From Gammaproteobacteria bacterium (GTDB taxonomy: Bacteria > Pseudomonadota > Gammaproteobacteria > JAKDMP01), in the NCBI GenBank assembly GCA_027018875.1, contig JALUYA010000015.1, positions 1 through 64,000 on the forward strand: a DNA stretch of 64,000 nt. Direction: 5' to 3'. Position numbers and translations under genes: made by a program. Of the stretch, positions 38,795 through 60,089 are shown one piece after another. How positions within the stretch are numbered: the stretch's first letter is position 1; each line of letters begins with the position of its first letter. A model generated the notes under the pieces. That model ran no database searches. It saw nothing but the letters and a program-made list of their open reading frames with translations, and was not told where the DNA came from.

Positions 38795-39517
38795 TCACCC
38801 CCCATCCTTCGCCGTCTGCAAGTCCATCTCATAAACCAGAACGCGGTAAAATCCATTAAATACCGGATGTCTCTCAACCTGGTGCAGGGTCTTTCCCAGC
38901 TTACCCGCTTCGCGTTGTAGTACGGCGCTGATATCTTCCCGCCAAAAATCTTCCAGAAACGGCTCCCAGCGAGTCAACAGTCGGCGCAATAATCGCCGGC
39001 GATAAATCCAATGCCGGCGGGGCTCCGCACCATATTCCGTAATTACCAGGCGGCCACCGGGTTGCAATACCCGCATGGTTTCCGCAAGCGTACGCTGTCG
39101 CGCCGCTACCGGCATCTCATGCATGAGAAAAAAAATCAGTATGGTGGCGAAAGTATTGTCCTGGAATGCCAATATCTCCGCATCCATGCGTACGGACAAC
39201 AGTTGTGAACGTCGGGTAGGCTCAAGTTTGTTGCGGCTGGCTTCAAGCTGTGCCGTAGCCACATCAATCAGGTACAACGATTGGTTGCCTAAATGACCCA
39301 ACAGCGTGGGAGTCAGCTTGCCATAGACACAGGTAAGTTGCAGCATCCGGCCGGTCGGGGAATTTTCAAGACAGTGCAACGTTTGCGTTAACAGGCGTCG
39401 GTATTGTCCAAATAAAATCAGATTAATAATTGGCTGGTGATCAAAAAACCAGATTGAGGGACGCCAAAGATAGGCCCACCAATAGTGGCGTGCCAGATAT
39501 TCCGGCGTACCATCCAA
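38795..39517 (-). CDS. rquA: RquA-like methyltransferase, probable rhodoquinone biosynthesis
   Basis: A protein of about 240 residues. YLARHYWWAYLWRP, INLILFGQYRRLL, LQLTCVYGKLTP, FFLMHEMPVAARQRTLAE and FLEDFWREDI fit RquA as I recall it, an odd SAM-binding methyltransferase relative that turns ubiquinone into rhodoquinone, the low-potential quinone used with fumarate reductase under low oxygen. The TTG at 39517 is the first ordinary start, but ATT at 39538 stands six bases after AAGGAGAG and gives an N-terminus beginning (M)SFWKKFLDGTP; ATT may be the true start. It follows the formate dehydrogenase genes by 72 bp on the same strand. A generic methyltransferase remains possible. Confidence 0.72.
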   Translation of the reverse strand: MDGTPEYLARHYWWAYLWRPSIWFFDHQPIINLILFGQYRRLLTQTLHCLENSPTGRMLQLTCVYGKLTPTLLGHLGNQSLYLIDVATAQLEASRNKLEPTRRSQLLSVRMDAEILAFQDNTFATILIFFLMHEMPVAARQRTLAETMRVLQPGGRLVITEYGAEPRRHWIYRRRLLRRLLTRWEPFLEDFWREDISAVLQREAGKLGKTLHQVERHPVFNGFYRVLVYEMDLQTAKDGG

Positions 39518-39589
39518 AAATTTTTTCCAAAATGAAATGTTGAACTCTCCTTATCCTTGTTTTCCGATCGGTTTATGCCGGTACTGTTA

Positions 39590-42328
39590 TTAAGTGTGCA
39601 TCTGCGATGCCTTGGCAATAGAAACCGCAACCACCTTGAATTCCGGCGTCATGCTGTCCAGGTCCAACACGTTGCTGGTCAGATGGTTAATGGCTGCTTC
39701 GGGAAAATGAAAGGTGGTAAACAAGACCCCGGGGCGAACCTCATTGCTAAGATGCGCCCGCAGGTGCGTCCGCCCCTGCCGCGAACACAGCAATACTTTG
39801 CCCCCATCACCAATACCATAATGTGCCGCATCCAGCGGATTGACCAATAATTCATCGTGATCGACAAGTTCAAGTACCGCTGTACGCCGGGTCATACTGC
39901 CACAATTATAATGTTCCAAGCGCCGTCCAGTGGTAAGGATAAAGGGATATTCCTCCTTATCGTCGCCCAGCAATTCCGGAGTTTCGACGAAATCGGTGAA
40001 TACGAAACGCCCCTTGCCGATCTTGAATTGCTCTGTATGCAGAATCCTGGTATCGCCGCCGTCCGCGTTTACGGGCCACTGCTTGCCATCGGCCCCGAGG
40101 CTGTCCCAGCGCACCCCGGCGAAAAACGGTACCACCTGGGAAATCTCCTCCAGCAGAACCGCCGGGTCATAATCCGCCTGCCGGTAGCCCATGCGGTTCA
40201 TGATATCCACTATGATCCTTCCGTCCGCCCGGGTGCCCTCCAGCGGTGCCATCACCTGGTTCACCCGCTGCACCCGCCGTTCGCCGTTGGTGAAAGTACC
40301 GCTCTTTTCCAGGTGGGAAGCGGCAGGCAGAACCACCTCGGCAAGGCTGGCCGTTTCGGTCATAAACAGCTCCTGCACCACCAGAAAATCCAGTTTCATA
40401 AGCGCTTGCCTGATGTGGGTCGTGTTGGGATCGGTTTGCAGAATATCCTCGCCCATGATCCACAGTGCCTTGAGCTTACCCTCACCCGCAGCGTGCATCA
40501 TCTCGGGTGTCGTCAGTCCCTTTTCCGCGGGCACGGGCCGCCCGTAATGACGTTCATAATGGGCCCGCACCTCGGGGTTGTAGATGTCCAGGTAACCGGC
40601 CCCCAGGTTCGGCTGCACGCCCATGTCGGCCGCACCCTGGACGTTGTTCTGGCCGCGCAATGGATTGAGCCCGACCCCCGGACGCCCGATATTACCGGTC
40701 ATCATGGCCAGCGCGGCAAGCAGCATCACCCCGCGGCTGCCCTGGTAATGTTCCGTAAGCCCGAGGCCATGGAAGGACATGGCGTTTTTTGCCTGGCCGT
40801 AAACCAGTGCCGCATCCCGCACCGTTGCATGACTGACACCGGTGACTTTTTCCAGCCGTTCCAGGTCGATATTCAATGCGGCTCGCCGGAAATCCTCGAA
40901 GCCTTCGGTACGCCGATGTACGAAATCCTCATCGACCAGGCCTTCGATGATGAGGTAGTAGACCAGCATTTCCAACAGTGCCGCATTGGTTCCCGGTCGT
41001 AACGGCAGGTGAATCGTCGCATAGCGGGCCAACTTGGTGCGCACCGGATCGATAACGATCAGGGGGATGCCCTTTATGGCCCGCTGCAATATTTTCGCGC
41101 CGGTGACAGGATGCGCCTCGGTGGGATTTGCCCCCACCACCAGCAAGCAATCGGCTTTCTCGATCTCTGCGATGGAATTGGTGGCCGCGCCGGTGCCGAA
41201 GGTCTTGCGCATGCCGAAAGCGGTCGGTGCGTGACATACCCGGGCACAGCCGTCGATGTTGTTGGTACCGATGACCACCCGCATGAATTTCTGCATCAGG
41301 TAGTTTTCCTCGTTGGTGCAGCGCGAGGAAGAAATACCGCCGATAGCCTGTGGCCCATGTTGTGCCTTGATATGTTCGAGCCGTTGGGCGATATGATCCA
41401 GGGCCTCATCCCAACCGACGGGCCGGAGTTTGCCCTCCTTGCGCAGCAAGGGGGTGCGCAGACGATCGGGATGATGGTAATAGGCAAAGGCATATCGCCC
41501 CTTGAGGCAGGCGTGTCCCTGATTCACTTGGGCATCATCCACCGCATCGATGGCGCGTATCTCTCCGTCTTTCAGCAGTACCTCCAGGTTGCAACCCACC
41601 CCGCAATAGGTGCAAACCGTGCGTACTCGCCGGTCCTCGACCAGGGTCTTGGTTCGAAAGTGATCGGTCAGCGCATTGGTGGGACAGGTCTGTACACAGC
41701 GGCCGCAGGACACACATTCGGATTCCAGGAAGGACTGGTTCAGCGAGGCAATGACCCGGGAAAGGTACCCCCGCCCGTGCATGGCCAGCACAAACTCACC
41801 CTGGATCTCGTCACAGGCGCGGATACAGCGATAACAATGAATGCACTGGGCCGGGTCGAAATGGATGTAGGGATGACTGGTGTCCACCGGGGTCGTCTCG
41901 ACATTGCCGGGAAACCGGCTGGTCACAGCGGCGGGTTGCACAATATCGGTGCCGATCTGCCGCACGAGTTTTTGGAAAGGAGTCGGTTTTTCACCGGGAT
42001 TCGGCACTAACGCTTGTTCGGGATAATCACTCAGCAACAATTCCAGGATTGTCCGGCGGAGTTTGCCGATGCGCGGCGAATTCGGATAGATATAGCGGCC
42101 GGCTTCCACCCGGGTATGGCATGCCGCCACGACACGCCGCGGCCCCTGTTCCGTCGGGGCTATATCGACACTGCACAGCCGGCAGTTCCCGAAAGGCGTC
42201 AACGCCTCGTCGTGGCACAGCACGGGTATCGCATCCGGCCCCTGGTAACGGCTGACAAAGTGATAGATTGTTTCGTCATGCTCAAAGGGATAGGCGACAC
42301 CATCGATATAGGCGATATTCTTACTCAT
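39590..42328 (-). CDS. fdhA: NAD-type formate dehydrogenase, catalytic (alpha) subunit
   Basis: A 912-residue molybdo/tungsto enzyme oxidising formate to CO2. The N-terminus is NuoG-like: a 2Fe-2S region with CHDEALTPFGNCRLC, then ferredoxin pairs CIHCYRCIRACDE and CVSCGRCVQTCP. The catalytic part starts at CTYCGVGCNLEV (4Fe-4S) and carries the active-site cysteine in CARVCHAPT; it is cysteine, not selenocysteine. The C-terminal domain binds the pterin cofactor. It overlaps the beta-subunit stop by eight bases. Electrons should pass through its clusters to the flavin subunit and NAD+. No accessory fdhD/fdhE is in the window. Confidence 0.93.
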   Translation of the reverse strand: MSKNIAYIDGVAYPFEHDETIYHFVSRYQGPDAIPVLCHDEALTPFGNCRLCSVDIAPTEQGPRRVVAACHTRVEAGRYIYPNSPRIGKLRRTILELLLSDYPEQALVPNPGEKPTPFQKLVRQIGTDIVQPAAVTSRFPGNVETTPVDTSHPYIHFDPAQCIHCYRCIRACDEIQGEFVLAMHGRGYLSRVIASLNQSFLESECVSCGRCVQTCPTNALTDHFRTKTLVEDRRVRTVCTYCGVGCNLEVLLKDGEIRAIDAVDDAQVNQGHACLKGRYAFAYYHHPDRLRTPLLRKEGKLRPVGWDEALDHIAQRLEHIKAQHGPQAIGGISSSRCTNEENYLMQKFMRVVIGTNNIDGCARVCHAPTAFGMRKTFGTGAATNSIAEIEKADCLLVVGANPTEAHPVTGAKILQRAIKGIPLIVIDPVRTKLARYATIHLPLRPGTNAALLEMLVYYLIIEGLVDEDFVHRRTEGFEDFRRAALNIDLERLEKVTGVSHATVRDAALVYGQAKNAMSFHGLGLTEHYQGSRGVMLLAALAMMTGNIGRPGVGLNPLRGQNNVQGAADMGVQPNLGAGYLDIYNPEVRAHYERHYGRPVPAEKGLTTPEMMHAAGEGKLKALWIMGEDILQTDPNTTHIRQALMKLDFLVVQELFMTETASLAEVVLPAASHLEKSGTFTNGERRVQRVNQVMAPLEGTRADGRIIVDIMNRMGYRQADYDPAVLLEEISQVVPFFAGVRWDSLGADGKQWPVNADGGDTRILHTEQFKIGKGRFVFTDFVETPELLGDDKEEYPFILTTGRRLEHYNCGSMTRRTAVLELVDHDELLVNPLDAAHYGIGDGGKVLLCSRQGRTHLRAHLSNEVRPGVLFTTFHFPEAAINHLTSNVLDLDSMTPEFKVVAVSIAKASQMHT

Positions 42329-43985
42329 GCTCCGCCTCCAGGCTGAAATAGTCCGCTACTTCGCTTCCGAAGTGATCCAGAATGTTACGCACCGGCAGCG
42401 GCAGACCGCCACCCAGGCCGCACAGGGAACCCAGCTCCAGGGTTTCCAGCAGGCTATCGAAGGCACTGCCATCGACGGGGTGGTCCTCCGTCGCCTCCAG
42501 CAGCATGCGCCGCCCCTTCTCGGTGCCCAGCCGGCAAGGCAGGCACTTACCACAGGATTCGGCGGCCATGAAGGTAAACAGATGGCGCAGGAATTCGATC
42601 ATGGGAAACTCTTGCGGAATAGAGACGACGCCGGCATGCCCCAGCAAGAAATCCTCGCCCGCAAACGACTTGAAATCCAGCGATAACGCAGTAATCTTTT
42701 CCACTGGTATCACACTGCCGAGCGGACCACCCACCTGTATGGCCTTCACCCATGTCCGAAACCCGCCGCCATAACCATAGATCACCCGCTCCAGCGAGGT
42801 GCCCATCTCGACTTCGTGTACCCCGGGAAGGTTAAACCCCCGATCCAGCGATACCAGCTTGGTGCCGGTACTCGCCTCCGTACCCAGCGCGACAAAGGCT
42901 GCACCGCCGTGCTCCAGTATCCAGGGCAGCGCGGCGAAGGTTTCCACGTTGCTCACCAGGGTGGGCCGGCCGAACAGTCCCTCCTGCGCAGGATAAGGGG
43001 GTCGGGTGCGCACCTCGGGCCGCAGGCCTTCGATGGAATTGAGCAGCGCGGTCTCTTCGCCGCAGATGTAAGATCCCGCCCCCCGTATCAGTCGGAATTG
43101 GAATCCCGTCTGCGCAAAGATAGAACTCTGTTCAAATGCCTCGATGGCCTTTGCCACATGTCTTTGCGCCCGGGGATATTCCGCCCGGACATAGAGAAAC
43201 CCGGTATCCGAACCTATCGCCAGCCCGCTCGCCAGCATGCCCGCCAGCACCTGCTGTGGGCGCTCTTCCAGCAGCCAGCGATCCGAAAAGGCCCCCGGGT
43301 CACCTTCATCGCCGTTACAGACAACATACTTCTGGCCCGCCGGCGCGCCGCGGCAGGCGGCAAGCTTGTCGGCGAAAGGGAAACCGGCGCCACCGCGACC
43401 CCGCAGTCCGGATACGGATAGTTCATCTATCAAGGAACGTAGCCCGGACACGGATAGCTCATCCAGTAATGAAACCGGAGTCAAGGACAGCGTTCGGGAT
43501 ATCTGTTGGTAGAGTGCTTCTGTCTCGTTTCCAGTATCACCAAACACCGAGTGCGGCGTATGGCAATAATAAGGAATCACCTCGGTTTCCGGTGCAGTAT
43601 CCGGGCCTGACCCGGTACTGAAACAGCGATCCCCTATCCGGTAGGCGCCGCCACGATAACAGTGTCCGAGGCAGGTGGCTTCACCGATTTGCTCATCCGG
43701 AAACCGCTTCGCCAACCGGGTACGGACCGCTTCCTGTTCTCCGCCCAGCTGGCAAACCGTACCATTACAGACATAGGCCTGTTTGTTGCGGTTACCAGCG
43801 GCGAGGAAATCATAAAAGGATGTAGTGCCCAACAGCGACGCCCGGGAAACCAGGCTATCCTCGGCCAGCGCCTGGAGTTGTTCCCGGGAAGGCGTGCCGG
43901 TCGTCTGTGCCGCCTCCTGCAGTGCCTCGAACAGGCCCTGTTTCTTGCCCCGACGCGCGCTCAGTGCCCGAATATTTTGCGACAT
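42321..43985 (-). CDS. fdhB: Formate dehydrogenase beta subunit, NuoE-NuoF fusion type
   Basis: A 554-residue protein. Residues 1-160 form a NuoE-like thioredoxin-fold domain with 2Fe-2S cysteines in CNGTVC and CLGHC; the rest is NuoF-like, with SGLRGRGGAGFPFADK for NADH/FMN binding, GAGSYICGEETALLNSIEG and the 4Fe-4S cysteines in ESCGKCLPCRLG. It passes electrons from the alpha subunit to NAD+. Just before the glycine loop the stretch LDELSVSGLR occurs twice in tandem, an extra 12 residues not expected in the family. No separate gamma subunit is present, consistent with the fused NuoE part. Confidence 0.92.
   Translation of the reverse strand: MSQNIRALSARRGKKQGLFEALQEAAQTTGTPSREQLQALAEDSLVSRASLLGTTSFYDFLAAGNRNKQAYVCNGTVCQLGGEQEAVRTRLAKRFPDEQIGEATCLGHCYRGGAYRIGDRCFSTGSGPDTAPETEVIPYYCHTPHSVFGDTGNETEALYQQISRTLSLTPVSLLDELSVSGLRSLIDELSVSGLRGRGGAGFPFADKLAACRGAPAGQKYVVCNGDEGDPGAFSDRWLLEERPQQVLAGMLASGLAIGSDTGFLYVRAEYPRAQRHVAKAIEAFEQSSIFAQTGFQFRLIRGAGSYICGEETALLNSIEGLRPEVRTRPPYPAQEGLFGRPTLVSNVETFAALPWILEHGGAAFVALGTEASTGTKLVSLDRGFNLPGVHEVEMGTSLERVIYGYGGGFRTWVKAIQVGGPLGSVIPVEKITALSLDFKSFAGEDFLLGHAGVVSIPQEFPMIEFLRHLFTFMAAESCGKCLPCRLGTEKGRRMLLEATEDHPVDGSAFDSLLETLELGSLCGLGGGLPLPVRNILDHFGSEVADYFSLEAEHE
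43398..43469 (-). repeat. 36-bp tandem duplication inside fdhB
   Basis: Two 36-bp units (43434-43469 and 43398-43433) encode L(L/I)DELSVSGLR plus Ser or Gly. They differ mostly at third codon positions, so the duplication is not brand new and the frame has been kept. It adds 12 residues ahead of the NADH/FMN glycine-rich loop. Confidence 0.85.
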
Positions 43986-51930: not shown

Positions 51931-53316
51931 CTAGGTCAACCGACCAAGTAACACCTGCGCCGCCAGGCCGATGCCCAGGGTGAAGACGAAGGCAATGGCC
52001 CATACCAGCCTGGCCAGTGGCATCGGCTCCGGGGCAAAAATCGGCGCCGCGGCATCGCTGCGCTGCCGGTACATCGGTACCACGATGCGCAGATACACCG
52101 CGAGCGACAGCACGCTGTTGAAAATGGCGACCACGGCCAGCCAGGTGAAGTGGGCATCGATGGCGGCGCCGAACAGCAGGAACTTGCCGACGAAGCCGGC
52201 CAGTGGGGGAATGCCGGTCAGGGAAAGGAGAAACAGCACCATCGCCACGCCGACGGCAGGGTTTTTGTGCCCGAGGCCCGCGAACGCGTCGAGGGTTCGC
52301 CCGGTTTGCAAGGCGACGGCAAACGCGCCCAGGTTCATGGCCGCGTAGGCGGCGGCGAAGACGATCAGGGCCGGCAGTGCGAGCGGGCTCACGCCCACCG
52401 CCACCACCCCCAGCAGGAAGTAGCCGGCCTGGGCGATCGATGAATAGGCCAGCAGCCGGACGACATTGTCCTGCACCAGCGCGGCCAGGTAACCAACCGT
52501 CATGGTCAGGACCGCGATAGCGGCGAGGAGAAGTGGCCAGCCACCGGAGACGGGCAGATCGCGCACCACCTGGACCAGGGCGAAGATCGCTCCGATCTTC
52601 GGGACCACCGATAGATAGGCGGCGACCGACAGCGGGGCACCTTCGTAGGCGTCGGGCGCCCAGAAATGAAACGGTACCAGGGAGGCCTTGTAGCCCAGTC
52701 CGACGATGACGGCGATCAGGCCGACGGCGGCGGCGAGCGGGGCCTTGTCGAGGCCGGCCAGGGCGCCGAGCAGCGTCGAGCCGGTGGCGCCGAACCAGTA
52801 GGTGAGACCGAAGATCATCACACTGCCGGTGACCGAGGCGAACACGAAGAACTTCATGGCCGCTTCGGTGGCGGCGTCGTTGCGTGGATAGGCAACCAGC
52901 GCGAAGGCGCCGAGGCCGGAGAGCAGCACGCCGAGCACCAGGAACATCAGGTCACCGCTACCGGCCAGCACCAGGGCGCCGAAGGTGGTGAAGCAGAGCA
53001 GACTGTAGACGGTCCCCTCCCGGTCGCTACCGTGGAGTTCGGCACGGGCCAGCAACAGGGACAACACGGTAGCCGGCAGCAGGATCAGCTTGGCCCAGAT
53101 ACTCAGGGCGTCGATGCGGAAGGTGCCGCTGAAGACACTCGTGTCCACGCCGAGCAGGGGCAAGGTCAGAGCGGTGGCGAGCAGCAGGCCGGAGACGGCG
53201 ACCGTCAACGCGGTACGGGGTCGGCGCAGCATCTCGCACACCAGGGTACCGGCGCCGGTCAGCAGCACGAGGATCTCGGGGATCAGGAACGCGAGGTCGT
53301 GGGCCATCGAGGTCAT
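51931..53316 (-). CDS. nuoN: NADH-quinone oxidoreductase-like subunit N (antiporter-type)
   Basis: A 461-residue, roughly 14-helix membrane protein of the Mrp/NuoL-M-N antiporter family. LGYKASLVPFHFWAPDAYEGAP carries the central channel lysine and the conserved H/W/P stretch. At the helix-5 glutamate of typical NuoN (GLE in the family) I read GVLLSGLGAFALVAY, so the acidic residue seems lost. Last gene of the nuo-like operon, 16 bp after nuoM. Start at 53316 or three codons later; neither has a clear ribosome site. Confidence 0.9.
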   Translation of the reverse strand: MTSMAHDLAFLIPEILVLLTGAGTLVCEMLRRPRTALTVAVSGLLLATALTLPLLGVDTSVFSGTFRIDALSIWAKLILLPATVLSLLLARAELHGSDREGTVYSLLCFTTFGALVLAGSGDLMFLVLGVLLSGLGAFALVAYPRNDAATEAAMKFFVFASVTGSVMIFGLTYWFGATGSTLLGALAGLDKAPLAAAVGLIAVIVGLGYKASLVPFHFWAPDAYEGAPLSVAAYLSVVPKIGAIFALVQVVRDLPVSGGWPLLLAAIAVLTMTVGYLAALVQDNVVRLLAYSSIAQAGYFLLGVVAVGVSPLALPALIVFAAAYAAMNLGAFAVALQTGRTLDAFAGLGHKNPAVGVAMVLFLLSLTGIPPLAGFVGKFLLFGAAIDAHFTWLAVVAIFNSVLSLAVYLRIVVPMYRQRSDAAAPIFAPEPMPLARLVWAIAFVFTLGIGLAAQVLLGRLT

Positions 53317-53332
53317 GCTGCGGTACGCCCCA

Positions 53333-54802
53333 TCAGAAGTGCAGGGTCGCGGTGGTCGTATGGATCACATCCAGCACCCAGGCGGGTGCGACGCCCACCC
53401 CGACGATCAGCACCAGTAACGGGATCATAGTGAGCAGCTCACGCGCGTTCAGATCGGGCAGGCCTTTCCACTGTGCCCGGGGCTCGCCGAGAAAGACCTG
53501 ACCGATGGCCCGCAGGTAGAGGCCCGCGGTGACTACAATACCGAGGATAACGATAAGGGCGACGGGTTCGACCCGCAGGGTCGCCAGGAAGATCTCGAAC
53601 TCGGCCGGGAAGTGCGCCAGTCCCGGCAGGCCCAGCGAGGCGAAGGCGGCCAGTACGAAGGACCAGCCGAGTATCGGCAGCCCTTTCAGCAGGCCGCCGA
53701 AGCGGGCCATCTCCCGCGTGTGGGCACGATCCTGAAGCATGCCGACGAGAAAGAACAGTGCGCCGGTGACCAGGCCGTGGCTGACCATCTGCAGCACCGC
53801 GCCGTCCAGGGCGAGGGCACGCACGGCGGGATCGATGGCCAGCGCGGCGATGGCGACGCCGACGACGACATAGCCCATGTGATTAACGGAAGTATAGGCG
53901 ACCAGGCGCTTGAGATCGGTCTGTGCCAGGGCGGCAAAGGCGCCATAGAGCGCGCTGACCACGCCGAAGATGAGAATGATGACGGCGGCGTAGCGAAATG
54001 CCTCGGGGGTCATCTGCAAGGCGAAGCGGATCAGGCCGTAGGCGCCGAACTTTAGCATCACCCCGGCGAGGATGACGCTGCCGGCGGCGGGAGCCTCGAC
54101 GTGAGCGGCCGGCAGCCAGGTATGCAGCGGAAACAGCGGTATCTTGACCGCGAAGGTAAACAGCATTGCAACCAGCGCCAGCATGGCCGCGATACCGGTC
54201 AATGGCGGGTGGGCAATCCAGACGCGCATGTCGAAGGTATGCGGGTTACTGCCGAGATACAGGCCGAGGATGGCGAGCAGCAGCGGCAGACTGCCCAACA
54301 GGGTATAGAGAAAAAACATCAGCGCCGCACGCTGCCGGCCTTCGTGCCCCCAGCCGGCGATCATGAAGTACATCGAGACCAGCGAGATTTCGAAGAAAAC
54401 ATAGAACAACAGGGCATCCAGTGCCGTGAAGGTACCGATAGACGCGGTTTCCAACAGCAGCATCAAAACCACGTAGGCATGCGGACGTTCCCTGACCTTG
54501 GCCGAAAAAATGAAGGTCAGCAAGAACAGCAGCGCGGTCAGCAACACCAGCGGCAGACTGATGCCGTCCACGCCCACCCGGTAGGCGGCACCGATGGTCG
54601 GCATCCAGTCGATCTGCTCCACCTGGGCGAAACCCACCGGCAGTACGCCCCGCGACCACATCCATACGGCGCTCGCCAGGGTCAGTGCACTGGTACCGAT
54701 ACCGATAGCATGCACAACCCGCACCGGCGCCTTGCGTGCAGCCATAATAAGCAACGCCCCGAGGAGCGGCAGAAACAGAGTGATGGACACGATGGGAAGC
54801 AC
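53333..54802 (-). CDS. nuoM: NADH-quinone oxidoreductase-like subunit M (antiporter-type)
   Basis: A 489-residue antiporter-like subunit. The helix-5 glutamate is in FYVFFEISLVSMYFMI, the central lysine in FAVKIPLFPLHTWLPAAHVEAP, and a second lysine in GVMLKFGAYGLIRF, so the proton path looks intact. It sits between nuoL and nuoN as in complete complex I operons. High GC content and third-position bias create long shadow frames on the opposite strand. Confidence 0.94.
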   Translation of the reverse strand: MLPIVSITLFLPLLGALLIMAARKAPVRVVHAIGIGTSALTLASAVWMWSRGVLPVGFAQVEQIDWMPTIGAAYRVGVDGISLPLVLLTALLFLLTFIFSAKVRERPHAYVVLMLLLETASIGTFTALDALLFYVFFEISLVSMYFMIAGWGHEGRQRAALMFFLYTLLGSLPLLLAILGLYLGSNPHTFDMRVWIAHPPLTGIAAMLALVAMLFTFAVKIPLFPLHTWLPAAHVEAPAAGSVILAGVMLKFGAYGLIRFALQMTPEAFRYAAVIILIFGVVSALYGAFAALAQTDLKRLVAYTSVNHMGYVVVGVAIAALAIDPAVRALALDGAVLQMVSHGLVTGALFFLVGMLQDRAHTREMARFGGLLKGLPILGWSFVLAAFASLGLPGLAHFPAEFEIFLATLRVEPVALIVILGIVVTAGLYLRAIGQVFLGEPRAQWKGLPDLNARELLTMIPLLVLIVGVGVAPAWVLDVIHTTTATLHF

Positions 54803-54816
54803 TCGGGCGTCTCCTC

Positions 54817-56634
54817 TTAAAAGGCCAGTAAAGTCACAAACAGGACGGCGAAAATCAGCGCGGTTGCCACCACGCTGATAGCCAGTTCGCGATGGATCAG
54901 GCCGCTCTGCAAGGTCCGGGCGCGATTGCCGAGATTGACCGTACCCCGCACCAGGGAAAAGATCAGCCCGTCGATGCCTTGGTCATCGCTACGGCGCACG
55001 GCCCGGCCGAGGCCGAGTCCCAGCCGGCCCACCGCCATCACCCCGGCGTACAGGCCGCGTTCCAGCCGCTCGCAACCGCGGGCCAGGGTGAGCGCGGGAC
55101 GTACGATCCAGACATCGACACCGCCGGCGATGGCAAAGCCTTGCCGGGCCCAGGGCAACAGCGGTCCCAGCAGACGCCGCCCGGGGATGAACCAGCCCAG
55201 CGCCAGGCCGCCCAGTGCCGCACTCAAGCCCAAAAGCCGTGCCAATGCGGGTTCGGGAACCGGGGTTGCCAACAGGGTTTCAATGAAGGGAAAAGCCGCC
55301 CCCAGGCCAATGGCCAGGATGACCAGTCCGGCCAGCCCCGCCCCCATCCAGCGCAACCCCGCCACGGGTTGATCCCGGCGCTTGCCCTGCCACAGGATAC
55401 GCAGGGCCCGGGCCATGTAGGCCCCGGTCAACAGGGTGCCGGCCAGGGCGAGCGGCGCCAGGAGTCGCGCGTTGGACGAGGCCAGGGAGGCGGCGATGAC
55501 GGCATCCTTGGCAAAGAACCCGCTCAGCGGCGGGATGCCGGCCAGGGCCAGTGCCGCCAGGGTGAAGCCGGCGAAGATCCATGGCCGGTCCCGGCCGGCG
55601 CCGTGCAGGTCCGCCAGACGGGTGGAGTGGCGGCTGTGCTGGAACACCCCGGCACCGAGGAACAGGGAACTCTTGATGGCCGCGTGGGCGATCAGCAGCA
55701 GCAGCGCCGCCTTGGGCACGCCGGCCCCGACCGCCACCAGCATGAGGCCGTACTGGCTGGAGGTCGAAGCCGCCAGCAGGCGCTTGAGGTCCCTCTCGGC
55801 GAGGGCGATGAGGCCGGTGACCACGGTGGTGATCCCGCCGACGATGCCGATGGCGAGCAGTGCGTCCGGCGGCAGCAGGGGTGCGGTGCGGATCAGCAGG
55901 ATGGCGCCGGCGGCCACCAGCGTCGCCGAATGCAGCAGGGCGGAGACCGGCGTGGGACCGGCCATGGCGCGCTGCAGCCAGTCGTGCAGCGGAGTCTGTG
56001 CGGACTTGCCCATGGCGGCCGCCAGCAGCAGGAGTCCGACGGCGACGCTCGCCCCTGCGCCGCTGTGCAGGGTGACGGCGATCTCGCTGCTGCCGGTGGT
56101 GGCGATGAGGAGGAACACGGCGGCGTAGAGCCCCAGGTCGGCCGTGCGGGTGTAGAGGAAGGCGCGTGTGGCGGCCGAAGCCACGTCGGGACGCCGATAC
56201 CAGAAGCCGATCAGCAGATAGCTGCTGAGCCCGATGAGTTCCCAGGCGGCGAGCAGCAATATCCAGTCGCCGGCGAGCACCAGCGTCTGCATGGCCGCAA
56301 TGAAGAACGACATGGTGGCGAAGAAGCGCACCTTCTCATCGTCCTGCTTCATGTAGCCGACGGCATAGATCAGCACCAGGGCGCCGACCACGGCGACCAA
56401 GGTCGACAGCAGTGCGGTCAGGGGGGTGCCGACCAAGCGCAGCGGCATGTCCGGCAGGCCGGGCAGGATCAGCGCGGCGTGCAGGCCGGCAGATGCGCCG
56501 GCCAACAGCACCAGGCTGGCGATGAGACCGGCACCGGCCCCCAGCAGCGCAAGCATGGCAGGGGCACGGCGCAGCACCGGGATCCCGGCCGCCGCCGCGA
56601 GGGGCGCAAGCACGACCAGGGCGAGGGGGCTCAT
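54817..56634 (-). CDS. nuoL: NADH-quinone oxidoreductase-like subunit L (antiporter-type)
   Basis: A 605-residue antiporter-like subunit with the C-terminal extension expected of NuoL. AAWELIGLSSYLLIGFWY contains the helix-5 glutamate; AMGKSAQTPLHDWLQRAMAGPTPVSALLHSAT contains the channel lysine and conserved histidines (here as separate short motifs). The lateral helix region after residue 500 is shorter and arginine-rich. Starts with an ATGA overlap with nuoK. Its presence argues for ion pumping or antiport by the complex. Confidence 0.94.
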   Translation of the reverse strand: MSPLALVVLAPLAAAAGIPVLRRAPAMLALLGAGAGLIASLVLLAGASAGLHAALILPGLPDMPLRLVGTPLTALLSTLVAVVGALVLIYAVGYMKQDDEKVRFFATMSFFIAAMQTLVLAGDWILLLAAWELIGLSSYLLIGFWYRRPDVASAATRAFLYTRTADLGLYAAVFLLIATTGSSEIAVTLHSGAGASVAVGLLLLAAAMGKSAQTPLHDWLQRAMAGPTPVSALLHSATLVAAGAILLIRTAPLLPPDALLAIGIVGGITTVVTGLIALAERDLKRLLAASTSSQYGLMLVAVGAGVPKAALLLLIAHAAIKSSLFLGAGVFQHSRHSTRLADLHGAGRDRPWIFAGFTLAALALAGIPPLSGFFAKDAVIAASLASSNARLLAPLALAGTLLTGAYMARALRILWQGKRRDQPVAGLRWMGAGLAGLVILAIGLGAAFPFIETLLATPVPEPALARLLGLSAALGGLALGWFIPGRRLLGPLLPWARQGFAIAGGVDVWIVRPALTLARGCERLERGLYAGVMAVGRLGLGLGRAVRRSDDQGIDGLIFSLVRGTVNLGNRARTLQSGLIHRELAISVVATALIFAVLFVTLLAF

Positions 56635-56942
56635 CCTTTCAGCTCCCGCGCCTCTTCCATCTCGACCGATCCCCTGGCGCGGAAGCGTGCGATCGCCACC
56701 CCGAATCCGACCGCCATTTCGACCGCCATCACGGTCATGACGATGAGCACGAACATCTGGCCCGCATAACTTTCCGGGTGGAGGAAACGCCAGAAGGCGA
56801 CCAAGTTGACCAGTGCGCCGGCCAGGATCAGCTCCACGCCCATCATGATCATGACCAGATTGGTTTGGGACAGCGCGCCGTAGAGGCCGATGCCGAACAG
56901 TCCCGCGCCGACGATCAGGGCCGTCAGCAAGTCCGGGCTCAT
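56631..56942 (-). CDS. nuoK: NADH-quinone oxidoreductase-like subunit K
   Basis: A 103-residue, three-helix membrane protein. GVELILAGALVNLVAF holds the first conserved glutamate and MAVEMAVGFGVAI the second, both part of the proton path in complex I. Overlaps nuoJ upstream and nuoL downstream by ATGA, so translation is coupled. Confidence 0.94.
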   Translation of the reverse strand: MSPDLLTALIVGAGLFGIGLYGALSQTNLVMIMMGVELILAGALVNLVAFWRFLHPESYAGQMFVLIVMTVMAVEMAVGFGVAIARFRARGSVEMEEARELKG

Positions 56943-57466
56943 GATGTCTTCTTCCTTTGCAGCACCGGCATGGCGACCGCGGTCGCGGCGATCATGGCGG
57001 TCAGGATGGTGACGCCGGCGGTTTCGAAGATGATCATCGAGCGTCCCAGCAGCTCCGTACCCAGTCCCCGGATCTGTTCCGCGGCCGCGGGGGCGACGGT
57101 TGCCGTCGGACCCCAGTGCGCAAACAGCGCGACCCCGGAAACCGCGAGCGCGCCGATCACGCCCGCCGCGATGGACAGACGCTTCTGGTGGGTCATGTCC
57201 ATTTCCCCGAGTCCGCCCGGGTCCATCATGAACATCACCATGAAGATGGCCATGATGCTCATCTCCGTGGCCATCATCATGATCTGCAAGACACCGAGAA
57301 ACTCCGCCTGCATGGCCAGAAACATCGCACCGAGGGCCGTCTGCGAGAACAGCAATGCCAGCGCCGAGCGCATCATGGATGAAGTGCGGAACACGACCAC
57401 GCCGAACCAGAGCGCGGCGATGCCGAAAAGGGCGATGAAGAAGGTTTGCAGTGTGATCACGGCCAT
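56939..57466 (-). CDS. nuoJ: NADH-quinone oxidoreductase-like subunit J
   Basis: A 175-residue membrane protein starting [15 protein letters not shown]. Five helices are visible, with the methionine-rich helix LGVLQIMMMATEMSIMAIF in the place of the NuoJ pi-bulge helix. The ATG at 57466 lies ten bases inside the end of nuoH; the much longer open frame upstream is a GC-driven artefact. The methionine richness (MMM, FMVMFMM) is notable. Confidence 0.9.
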   Translation of the reverse strand: MAVITLQTFFIALFGIAALWFGVVVFRTSSMMRSALALLFSQTALGAMFLAMQAEFLGVLQIMMMATEMSIMAIFMVMFMMDPGGLGEMDMTHQKRLSIAAGVIGALAVSGVALFAHWGPTATVAPAAAEQIRGLGTELLGRSMIIFETAGVTILTAMIAATAVAMPVLQRKKTS

Positions 57467-58353
57467 ACCAGCACCATAACGCCGACGATGAAGATATTGA
57501 GCAGGGCCAGCGGAATACCCAGTTTCCAGCACCAGGCCAGCAGGTGCGCCTCGCGGATGCGCGGCAGATAATGCCCGATCAACAGCATGGTCGCGCTTAC
57601 GGCTAGTATCTTGACGGCGCTCCAGGCCCAGGGCGGCAGTACCGGTCCCAGCCAGCCGCCCAGATAGAAGACCACCGTGGCCGCCGACAGCGTGATCACC
57701 AGCACCAGTCGTCCCAGCCGGAAGACAGCCAGGCGGACGCCGGTATACTCGCTCGTCACGCCGCCGGCCAGTTCCCCCTCCGCGCTCGGCAGGTCGAACG
57801 GCGGCAGGAAGGCGACCCCCATGGCGGCGATGAAGAACAGGACAAAACCGAGCGGTTGGTAGAGGATGTTCCACAGCCCGGTCTGCGAGGCGACGATGTC
57901 GGTGGTGAGCAGCGATTCGGCCCGCATGGCGACCGCCGTGATGGGCATGACGATGAGCATCGAGTAGGCGATGAGCTGGCCCAGAAATCGCCAACCGCCG
58001 ATCAGGGCATAGGCGCCGTCCGGTCCCCAGCCGGCCATCAACAGGGCCACCAGCACGTAGGCCAGGGCGGCATTTACGAACAGGGCGCCGGTGGCGAGGT
58101 TGGTGATGAAAAGCCCCGGCGCCAACGGCAGGACGGCGGCGGCCAGCAGTGCGGCGATCAGCAGCAGCGCCGGCGCGGTTTCGAAGAAGAGCCGGTCCGG
58201 TTGGCGCGGGACCACGGATTCGCGGCCCAGCAGGGCCATGGCCGCCCAGCCCGGTGCGGCGAGGCGCAGGCGGCCGGTTGCCAGCCGGGCCTCGAGGACC
58301 GCGACCAGATACGCGCCCGCGAAGAGGAACCCGAGGACGACGGCAATCCTCAT
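57457..58353 (-). CDS. nuoH: NADH-quinone oxidoreductase-like subunit H
   Basis: A 298-residue membrane subunit. [17 protein letters not shown] and [15 protein letters not shown] match the conserved quinone-side loop (PFDLPEAE in the family). The N-terminal loop, normally ERK-x-x-GR-x-Q-x-R-x-GP, reads [16 protein letters not shown], so it is degenerate at the contact to the N2-cluster subunit. This fits the loss of the cluster in the fused partner. Its ATG overlaps the fusion gene stop as ATGA. Confidence 0.92.
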
Positions 58354-60089
58354 TGCACGACCTCCCAGGGCGACAGGTCCAGCGAGGCGACCGTGGTGAG
58401 CCCATCCCCCAGTTCCTGCTGTTCCAACAGAGGCGCCACCAAGTCCAGGTGGTGGGTGGACGGCGTATCCAGTCGCGCATCGATCACGCGGCCGTTGTCC
58501 AGAGTCAGTTGCAGACGGGCTTCGCCTCGCGGCGTTTCCACGGCAGCCTCGCCTTTGCCGGATATCACTCCGATATCGACCGGTGTCGGCAGCACGATGG
58601 CCCCCGCGGCCTTGATGAGAGCGAGGCTGTGGCGGGTCTCGTCGAGGCGAACGTGCAGGCGGGCCAGGGCATCCCCCCTGTCCCGACTGACCGCTGTGAA
58701 CCCCAGGGTGGAGCAGGTCTTGTCCCTGCTGCGTGCATCGTCGCCGACCCCGGTGGCGCGCGCCACCGGACCACGCAACACGGTGTCCGGTACCATCCGA
58801 CCGATACCTGCCGTGCGGGATTTCAGTAGCGGGGTTCGCTGCAAGCGTTTGATGAGGGCCTGGAGCGCCGGGCTCAGCGCCATAACTTGCTTTATATCGG
58901 CATGCAGGAACTGCAATTGCAGCGACGCGGCACGGCGTAGCAGCCAGCCGAAGCCGATTTGTCGGGCAAACAGAGCCAGCCAACCCAGATGGCTGGCGAT
59001 GCGTTCACGCTCCATGGCCGCGATGCGTCCGCGCAGAATCTCCTCGTCGGGGGCCTGTCCGGCCGCGGCTTCCAGGGTACGGCAGGCTAGCAGGCGGTAA
59101 CAGATCGGCGCCAACGGGTCCGACGCGCTGAGGTGCTCGACAAAGTCCGCCGCCCCCATGCCGGACGCCGGCAACGCCCCGGATCCGCCTACGAGCGACT
59201 GCGCGCGGGCCTTCGCGATGCCGTCCCCGTCGAGTGTCAGGGTTAGAAGCAGGCCGCCCGGCAGCCCAGGGAAGAACGGGCCGAACGGCACCTCGATCCA
59301 GTCCATCGGCAGGCCGTCGGGGCTGCGCGGCAGATCCTTGGTTACTTCGACCATGGACATAAAACCCATATCGCCGTGGTCCATATCGGCGTCCTGATGT
59401 CCCTGTGCGTGTTCGTCGGCCGATCCGGCCTCGCGGGGCACCAAGTTCATGCCGCATTTGGGACAGGACCCCGGCTCACCCTGCACAATTTCCGGGTGCA
59501 TGGGACAGGTGTATTCGGGCGGGGTAGCGTGCTCTGCGCCGTGATGGGGTTCCGCCGAAGCTGACGCCTCGCGGGGCACCAGGTTCATGCCACACTTGGG
59601 ACAAGAGCCCGGTTGGTCCTGCACCACTTCCGGGTGCATGGGACAGGTGTATTCGATCCGGATCTGTAGTGCCGGGGCATCGAAATCGGATACGCCGAGT
59701 CGGAAGGCGCCGCGGGAAAAGGCGGATCGGAGTCGGGTCACTCCGTCGAGAAGTCCGGATTGCGACAGATCGGCGGTAACGTCGGCGTGAGGCAGCGGCG
59801 AGGGAGTGGCGCTGGCTCCGAGCGAAAAGATTGCACGGGGCCGCATCATCTGGGCATACAGGACGATTACGGCATCACCCAGTTCACGAGGGACGGGGCC
59901 GACCAACAGCAATACATTGGCGTGGCGCGGTGTGGCGGCGATCTGCAGCCCGGCGGATTCGATGTCCAACCCGCGGGCGCGGGCCACTTCCGGGCCCGGG
60001 ACGATGATGGCATGAAGATCGCGGGCCATCGCCGCCGCCGTCAGTCGGCGCAGTCCGGATACAGTCCCCGCTCGAGCGCCTGCGATCAC
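58350..60089 (-). CDS. Fused NuoB-like / two heavy-metal-binding domains / NuoD-like subunit
   Basis: A 579-residue fusion with GTG start, directly after nuoA. Residues about 50-92 ([20 protein letters not shown], then RAIFSLGA) match NuoB or group 4 hydrogenase small subunits, but no cysteine occurs before residue 149, so the N2 4Fe-4S cluster cannot form. Residues 147-173 and 193-219 are two copies of the YTCPMHPE...[12 protein letters not shown] metal-binding domain known from copper/heavy-metal exporters, followed by a His/Asp-rich linker (about 225-242). Residues 262-579 are NuoD-like: [13 protein letters not shown] stands where GPQHPxTHG is usual, then [12 protein letters not shown] and RLDETRHSL. 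NiFe cysteine pairs are absent. NuoC is missing. It should be the only hydrophilic part of this complex. Confidence 0.85.
59428..59654 (-). repeat. 138-bp tandem repeat encoding the two metal-binding domains
   Basis: Segments starting at 59428 and 59566 are near identical for about 90 bases (both open GCCTCGCGGGGCACCA on the plus strand) and repeat with a 138-bp period. They encode the two C-P-M-H-P / C-P-K-C-G-M domains. The close DNA match points to a fairly recent internal duplication. Confidence 0.85.

What the first reader, a model, noticed from the sequence alone, without database searches (positions are those of the whole stretch)
38795..39538. Probable rhodoquinone enzyme RquA next to formate dehydrogenase
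YWWAY, CVYGKLTP, FFLMHEMP and FLEDFWREDI fit the RquA family. RquA is patchily spread and marks rhodoquinone-based anaerobic respiration (fumarate reduction). With fdhA/fdhB upstream on the same strand, formate could feed NADH into such a chain. It fits the FNR theme of the window.
Basis: partly seen in the sequence, partly recalled or inferred. Interest (0 to 1): 0.65.

Follow-up and report, generated by a model that had tools for sequence, protein, structure and literature searches.

The report
RquA-like quinone enzyme, unrecognised third branch
The gene encodes a relative of RquA, the enzyme that turns ubiquinone into rhodoquinone, but it belongs to a separate and apparently untested branch of that family that recurs in iron-oxidising, low-oxygen bacteria, so which quinone it makes is an open and testable question.

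Summary
Minus strand 39538-38795 encodes a 247-aa RquA-family protein that directly follows fdhB-fdhA. Its likely start is a rare ATT codon with a good ribosome site. It is not an ordinary methyltransferase: RquA model 178.9 bits, best UbiE model 44.7. It is also not a standard RquA. Across about 770 Pseudomonadota genomes, scores on the curated RquA model are bimodal: standard RquA at 279-318 bits, and a second set at 143-186 that straddles the 175-bit cut-off and contains this protein. In trees the second set is a separate branch ("clade C"). Placing the window protein with standard RquA is rejected (AU p=0.004). Clade C keeps the odd SAM motif, YWWAY and HExP, but lacks DYHxP and LYQ, invariant in RquA. 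It recurs in Mariprofundus/Ghiorsea, Gallionella/Ferrigenium, Ca. Tenderia and vent Gammaproteobacteria. Unlike standard RquA (11/11), it often occurs without UbiUV (8/23). This genome has UbiTUV, UbiA, one SDH, no MenD and a Cyc2-like cytochrome-porin. Best reading: a SAM-using ubiquinone-modifying enzyme, probably making rhodoquinone or a close analogue. The product is unproven; one published rquA gene from a class where only divergent homologues were found gave no rhodoquinone in E. coli.

The parts
38795..39538 (-). RquA-like gene (clade C), 247 aa, probable ATT start at 39538-39536; motifs YWWAY (19-23), LQLTCVYG (66-73), D92, D119, HEMP (140-143)
   Evidence: NF038261 178.9 bits; alignments and trees; AlphaFold2 pLDDT 92, best PDB match yeast Coq5
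39545..39552 (-). Shine-Dalgarno-like AAGGAGAG, about 6 nt before the ATT
   Evidence: read directly from sequence
39590..42328 (-). fdhA, formate dehydrogenase alpha subunit with NuoG-like N-terminal Fe-S domains
   Evidence: TIGR01591 777.8 bits over cut-off 666.25; Pfam molybdopterin domains
42321..43985 (-). fdhB, NuoE-NuoF fusion, NAD/FMN-binding formate dehydrogenase subunit
   Evidence: Pfam 2Fe-2S_thioredx, Complex1_51K, NADH_4Fe-4S

Best explanation
The gene encodes a membrane-associated, SAM-dependent quinone-modifying enzyme of the RquA family, in a third deep clade ('C') separate from the standard RquA groups A and B. It most likely takes ubiquinone and SAM and replaces a ring methoxy group with an amine, giving rhodoquinone or a close low-potential amino-quinone. 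In this genome, formate would feed NADH through FdhAB into a quinone pool whose lower potential suits work at low O2: fumarate reduction through the single complex II, or easier reverse electron flow to NAD+. Shown here: family, clade, operon-like layout, SAM-site residues, ubiquinone genes. Inferred: substrate, product and physiological use.
For: RquA model 178.9 bits against 44.7 for the best UbiE model. The RquA-like group is separated from UbiE with 100/100 support. About 30 positions are shared by clade C and standard RquA but not by UbiE, including YWWAY, LQxxCxYG, HExP and EPF. R. rubrum D118 and D143, whose double mutant makes no RQ (PMC9814641), correspond to D92 and D119, both present. 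The genome has UbiA, ubiTUV-ubiD-fnr and sdhCDAB, and no MenD. The sister-family genome G001, without the gene, also lacks UbiUV. No genome held both kinds. Some clade C loci adjoin cytochrome c or Cyc2-like genes.
Against: The AU test rejects placing it with standard RquA (p=0.004). H170, P172 and Q232 (100% in 40 RquA) are replaced. UbiUV occurs in 11/11 standard-RquA genomes but only 8/23 clade C genomes. A published rquA from class GWC2-55-46 gave no RQ in E. coli (PMC13386864); in what is by its ubiCADG operon that class, all four homologues score below the cut-off and two are clade C. Which one was tested is not known here.
Confidence: 0.55

Rival explanations
1. Clade C is a distinct enzyme: it acts on ubiquinone, or another quinone or quinone precursor, but makes a different product, perhaps an undescribed quinone used by microaerophilic chemolithotrophs in reverse electron transport.
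For: Deep separation from RquA; clade-specific residues at 25, 34, 118-121, 168-172 and 230-233; strong presence in Fe(II) oxidisers such as Mariprofundus and Gallionella; often no UbiUV; no RQ from a GWC2-55-46 rquA in E. coli (PMC13386864).
Against: The most unusual RquA features (motif I, HExP, YWWAY) are kept. The negative E. coli result may be poor expression, and the tested gene cannot be assigned to clade C for certain. The window protein keeps Asp at 119, where 94% of clade C have Asn.
Confidence: 0.28
2. It is a standard RquA that has merely diverged, fully equivalent to the R. rubrum enzyme, and marks classical rhodoquinone-fumarate respiration.
For: Passes the curated equivalog cut-off (178.9 against 175); UbiTUV and FNR-family regulators in the genome.
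Against: AU p=0.004 against grouping with RquA; the bimodal score distribution shows the cut-off runs through the middle of another clade; no dedicated fumarate reductase found; invariant RquA residues missing.
Confidence: 0.12
3. It is an ordinary SAM methyltransferase of the UbiE/Coq5 type that keeps only a resemblance to RquA.
For: Class I methyltransferase fold; best PDB match is the quinone methyltransferase Coq5; Pfam Ubie_methyltran 43.3 bits; E121 and E168 agree with UbiE.
Against: 44.7 bits against a cut-off of 378 for UbiE; the GxGxG motif I is replaced by CVYG as in RquA; a separate UbiE homologue exists in the genome (L002).
Confidence: 0.05

Closest known systems
RquA (rhodoquinone biosynthesis, NF038261; groups A and B of Stairs et al. 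2018, PMC5953543)
   Same: Fold, length, non-canonical motif I, YWWAY, HExP, EPF, Asp pair needed for RQ synthesis; occurs in ubiquinone producers
   Different: Separate clade; lacks DYHxP and LYQ; W25/H34/R185/R232 instead; often without UbiUV; no neighbouring complex II in 80 loci (3 of 18 for standard RquA)
rquA of Desulfobacterota class GWC2-55-46 (PMC13386864)
   Same: In the class identified here by its ubiCADG operon, two of four homologues are clade C (L107/L181, L180)
   Different: Reported gene gave no RQ in E. coli; the window protein comes from Gammaproteobacteria; which homologue was tested is not known here
UbiE/Coq5 quinone C-methyltransferases
   Same: Class I SAM fold, parent family of RquA according to PMC5953543
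   Different: Canonical GxGxG motif I, no YWWAY or HExP; 44.7 bits only

Membership tests
RquA (NF038261 equivalog) | Score over the curated cut-off of 175 bits | tested here: met
   178.9 bits, a marginal pass; the cut-off divides the protein's own clade
RquA (NF038261 equivalog) | Belongs to the clade of standard RquA groups A+B | tested here: not met
   Trees; AU p=0.004 against grouping with 18 standard RquA
RquA (NF038261 equivalog) | Non-canonical SAM motif I | tested here: met
   LQLTCVYG in place of UbiE LDLAGGTG; deviation described in PMC5953543
RquA (NF038261 equivalog) | Aspartates equivalent to R. rubrum D118 and D143 | tested here: met
   D92 and D119; requirement from PMC9814641. 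Equivalence inferred from the 25-residue spacing in standard RquA; the R. rubrum sequence itself was not aligned
RquA (NF038261 equivalog) | Residues invariant in 40 standard RquA: H170, P172, Q232 | tested here: not met
   Window has G170, E172, R232
RquA (NF038261 equivalog) | Ubiquinone precursor pathway in the genome | tested here: met
   UbiA 330 bits, UbiTUV-UbiD locus
RquA (NF038261 equivalog) | Converts ubiquinone to rhodoquinone with SAM and Mn2+ | not testable with these tools
   Needs expression and LC-MS
UbiE/Coq5 methyltransferase | Score over equivalog cut-off and canonical GxGxG motif I | tested here: not met
   44.7 bits against 378; motif I is CVYG
NAD-dependent formate dehydrogenase (FdhA of the neighbours) | TIGR01591 over cut-off plus NuoE/F-type NAD subunit | tested here: met
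   777.8 against 666.25 bits; FdhB domains

The most novel reading that the evidence does not exclude
Clade C makes an undescribed low-potential quinone, or rhodoquinone in organisms not known to have it, that microaerophilic Fe(II)-oxidisers and related chemolithotrophs use in reverse electron transport or low-O2 respiration. Their quinone pool would then not be plain ubiquinone.
Probability: 0.35. Interest if true: 0.85.

Novelty: new variant of a known kind. Interest (0 to 1): 0.6.

Why it matters
The curated cut-off calls about half of this clade RquA and leaves the other half unnamed, so surveys of rhodoquinone may both over-call and under-call it. If clade C makes rhodoquinone, the energy metabolism of major Fe(II)-oxidisers (Mariprofundus, Gallionella) needs redrawing. 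If it makes something else, a new quinone is waiting to be found. In the paper library searched, no paper held both rquA and Gallionellaceae; only two held both Zetaproteobacteria and rhodoquinone, and neither title or abstract describes such a gene in that group.

Tried and rejected
(1) Ordinary methyltransferase: rejected by score, motif I and tree. (2) TTG at 39517 as start: unlikely, about 27 nt from the ribosome site and short of the conserved N-terminus. (3) FNR box on the fdh operon: none with 0-1 mismatch between 39 and 45 kb. (4) Conserved fdh-rquA linkage: in 80 clade C loci no FdhB was found and only 25%-identical molybdopterin relatives of FdhA in three. (5) Known RNA elements at 38-46 kb: none. 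(6) Plasmid relatives: none. (7) Solved RquA structure: none among the PDB matches. (8) Quinone measurements for Mariprofundus, Ghiorsea or Ferriphaselus: none located in the abstracts and passages read.

Full report
Observation. It scores 178.9 bits on the curated RquA model (cut-off 175), against 44.7 bits for the best UbiE model. fdhB (43985-42321) and fdhA (42328-39590) precede it on the same strand, overlapping each other by 8 bases, and fdhA ends 51 bases before it. FdhA is a formate dehydrogenase alpha subunit (777.8 bits, cut-off 666) and FdhB a NuoE-NuoF fusion, so the enzyme is of the NAD-reducing kind. The frame has no ATG/GTG/TTG at its conserved N-terminus. An ATT sits 6 nt after AAGGAGAG, and close relatives have Met at the matching distance from the first Trp, so an ATT start is the simplest reading. 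The gene has 51% GC against 58-62% for its near neighbours, which fits recent acquisition but does not prove it.

The curated score hides two families. Searches with NF038261 in 369 genomes of the class and 399 of the phylum gave a two-humped distribution: standard RquA at 279-318 bits, one protein at 225, and a second set at 143-186 bits. The window protein is in the second set, which the 175-bit cut-off cuts roughly in half. No genome held both kinds.

Phylogeny. In a tree of 83 rows the 27 standard RquA formed one clade (100), and the window protein fell in a separate clade of 50 (SH-aLRT 96), with L020 and L029/L030 branching between. In a second, careful tree of 51 rows, forcing the window protein together with 18 standard RquA was rejected (AU p=0.004), while the whole RquA-like group was separated from UbiE with 100/100 support. 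The branch to UbiE is very long, so the root inside the RquA-like group is unsure. I call the window's group clade C; groups A and B are those of Stairs et al. (PMC5953543). The orders listed for RquA in that study do not include Gallionellales or Mariprofundales.

Residues. About 30 positions are shared by clade C (89 sequences) and standard RquA (40) but not by UbiE: Y14, L15, Y19, W21, A22, Y23, L42, Q67, C70, Y72, Q97, H140, E141, P143, E192, P193, W199, Y231 and others. R. rubrum D118 and D143, whose double mutant makes no RQ (PMC9814641), are 25 residues apart. The same spacing identifies them in standard RquA here, and they align with window D92 and D119. At 119, 94% of clade C have Asn; the window has Asp. 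Residues invariant in standard RquA (H170 and P172 of DYHxP, Q232 of LYQ) are missing. AlphaFold2 gives a confident class I methyltransferase fold (pLDDT 92) whose best PDB match is yeast Coq5 with SAM.

Where clade C lives. The best 80 named loci include Mariprofundus, Ghiorsea, Gallionella, Candidatus Ferrigenium, Candidatus Tenderia and many hydrothermal-vent Gammaproteobacteria. The nearest relatives of the window protein (79% identical) are Ca. Tenderia BWSM_60, SZUA-24 and HyVt-414. In one search, 28 genomes of one family (f207) had clade-C-range scores. G381 of that family shows the same UbiA place and score as the genome of Mariprofundus sp. KV. A Cyc2 N-terminal consensus that I wrote myself as a probe found fused cytochrome-porin homologues in all 7 f207 genomes tested and in the window's own genome (L187:8491-7139, followed by a cytochrome c gene). 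With this loose query, 11 of 25 carriers of clade C or intermediate types had a hit, against 2 of 11 standard-RquA genomes and none of 12 others; relatedness was not corrected for. In L066 and L072 a Cyc2-like gene directly precedes the clade C gene on the same strand, and small cytochrome c genes are frequent neighbours in vent Gammaproteobacteria. Neighbourhoods are otherwise not conserved.

Genome setting. The window's genome (2.21 Mb, 95% complete) has UbiA, a ubiT-ubiU-ubiV-ubiD locus next to an FNR/Crp-family gene (UbiT by reading the sequence), one sdhCDAB and no MenD. It can therefore probably make ubiquinone without O2, and its only low-potential quinone route, if any, would be this gene (the futalosine route was not tested). 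The sister-family genome G001 has neither the gene nor UbiUV. Across genomes, UbiUV is present in 11/11 standard-RquA genomes but 8/23 clade C genomes (Fisher p=0.0005; by family 8/8 against 7/14, p=0.02). Standard rquA adjoins a second complex II in 3 of 18 loci; clade C in 0 of 80.

Functional data from elsewhere. PMC13386864 reports an rquA in one genome of Desulfobacterota class GWC2-55-46 that gave no RQ in E. coli. L107 lies in a genome with the ubiC-ubiA-ubiD-ubiG operon described for that class. In its class, 4 of 63 genomes have homologues, all below the cut-off: two clade C and two of an odd lineage near standard RquA. The tested gene is therefore probably not a standard RquA, but it cannot be identified here.

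Interpretation. The shared odd motif I, HExP and YWWAY, with the Asp pair kept in this protein, argue that clade C keeps the SAM-dependent, quinone-directed chemistry of RquA. The missing DYHxP/LYQ residues, the different genomic company and the failed E. coli test leave the product open. Rhodoquinone or a close analogue is the best guess (0.55). A different product is the main rival.

Noticed in passing
window 39536-39538: Probable rare ATT start codon with a strong ribosome-binding site; relatives start with ATG at or near this point.
   Followed up: partly
window 51931-60089, minus strand: Complex-I-like operon (NuoN, M, L, J, H homologues) ending in a 579-aa protein with two heavy-metal-binding domains ([12 protein letters not shown]) in front of a NuoD-like domain. 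NuoM/NuoN-like genes are also at G000:C1 (L187:17-1848, by sequence reading).
   Followed up: partly
window 10966, 17521, 17812, 20922: Four perfect TTGATNNNNATCAA FNR-type boxes; 35 sites with up to 2 mismatches against 21 expected, near fermentative and glycolytic genes, not near fdh-rquA.
   Followed up: no
L187:7139-8491 (G000:C1): Cyc2-like fused cytochrome-porin followed by a monoheme cytochrome c in the window's genome; possible Fe(II) or extracellular electron uptake.
   Followed up: partly
L182, L183: Odd RquA-like proteins (136-146 bits) in the class with the ubiCADG operon, lacking the YWWAY block and branching next to standard RquA.
   Followed up: partly
L020 (G009), L029/L030 (family f112), L019 (G008): Intermediate RquA-like proteins that branch between clade C and standard RquA or score in the gap (225 bits).
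   Followed up: partly
L054:10802-11578 and similar loci: A membrane protein with one CxxCH haem motif and no Pfam match lies one gene after the clade C gene in about 12 vent Gammaproteobacteria loci (up to four genes away in 18), near 2-oxoacid:ferredoxin oxidoreductase-like genes.
   Followed up: partly
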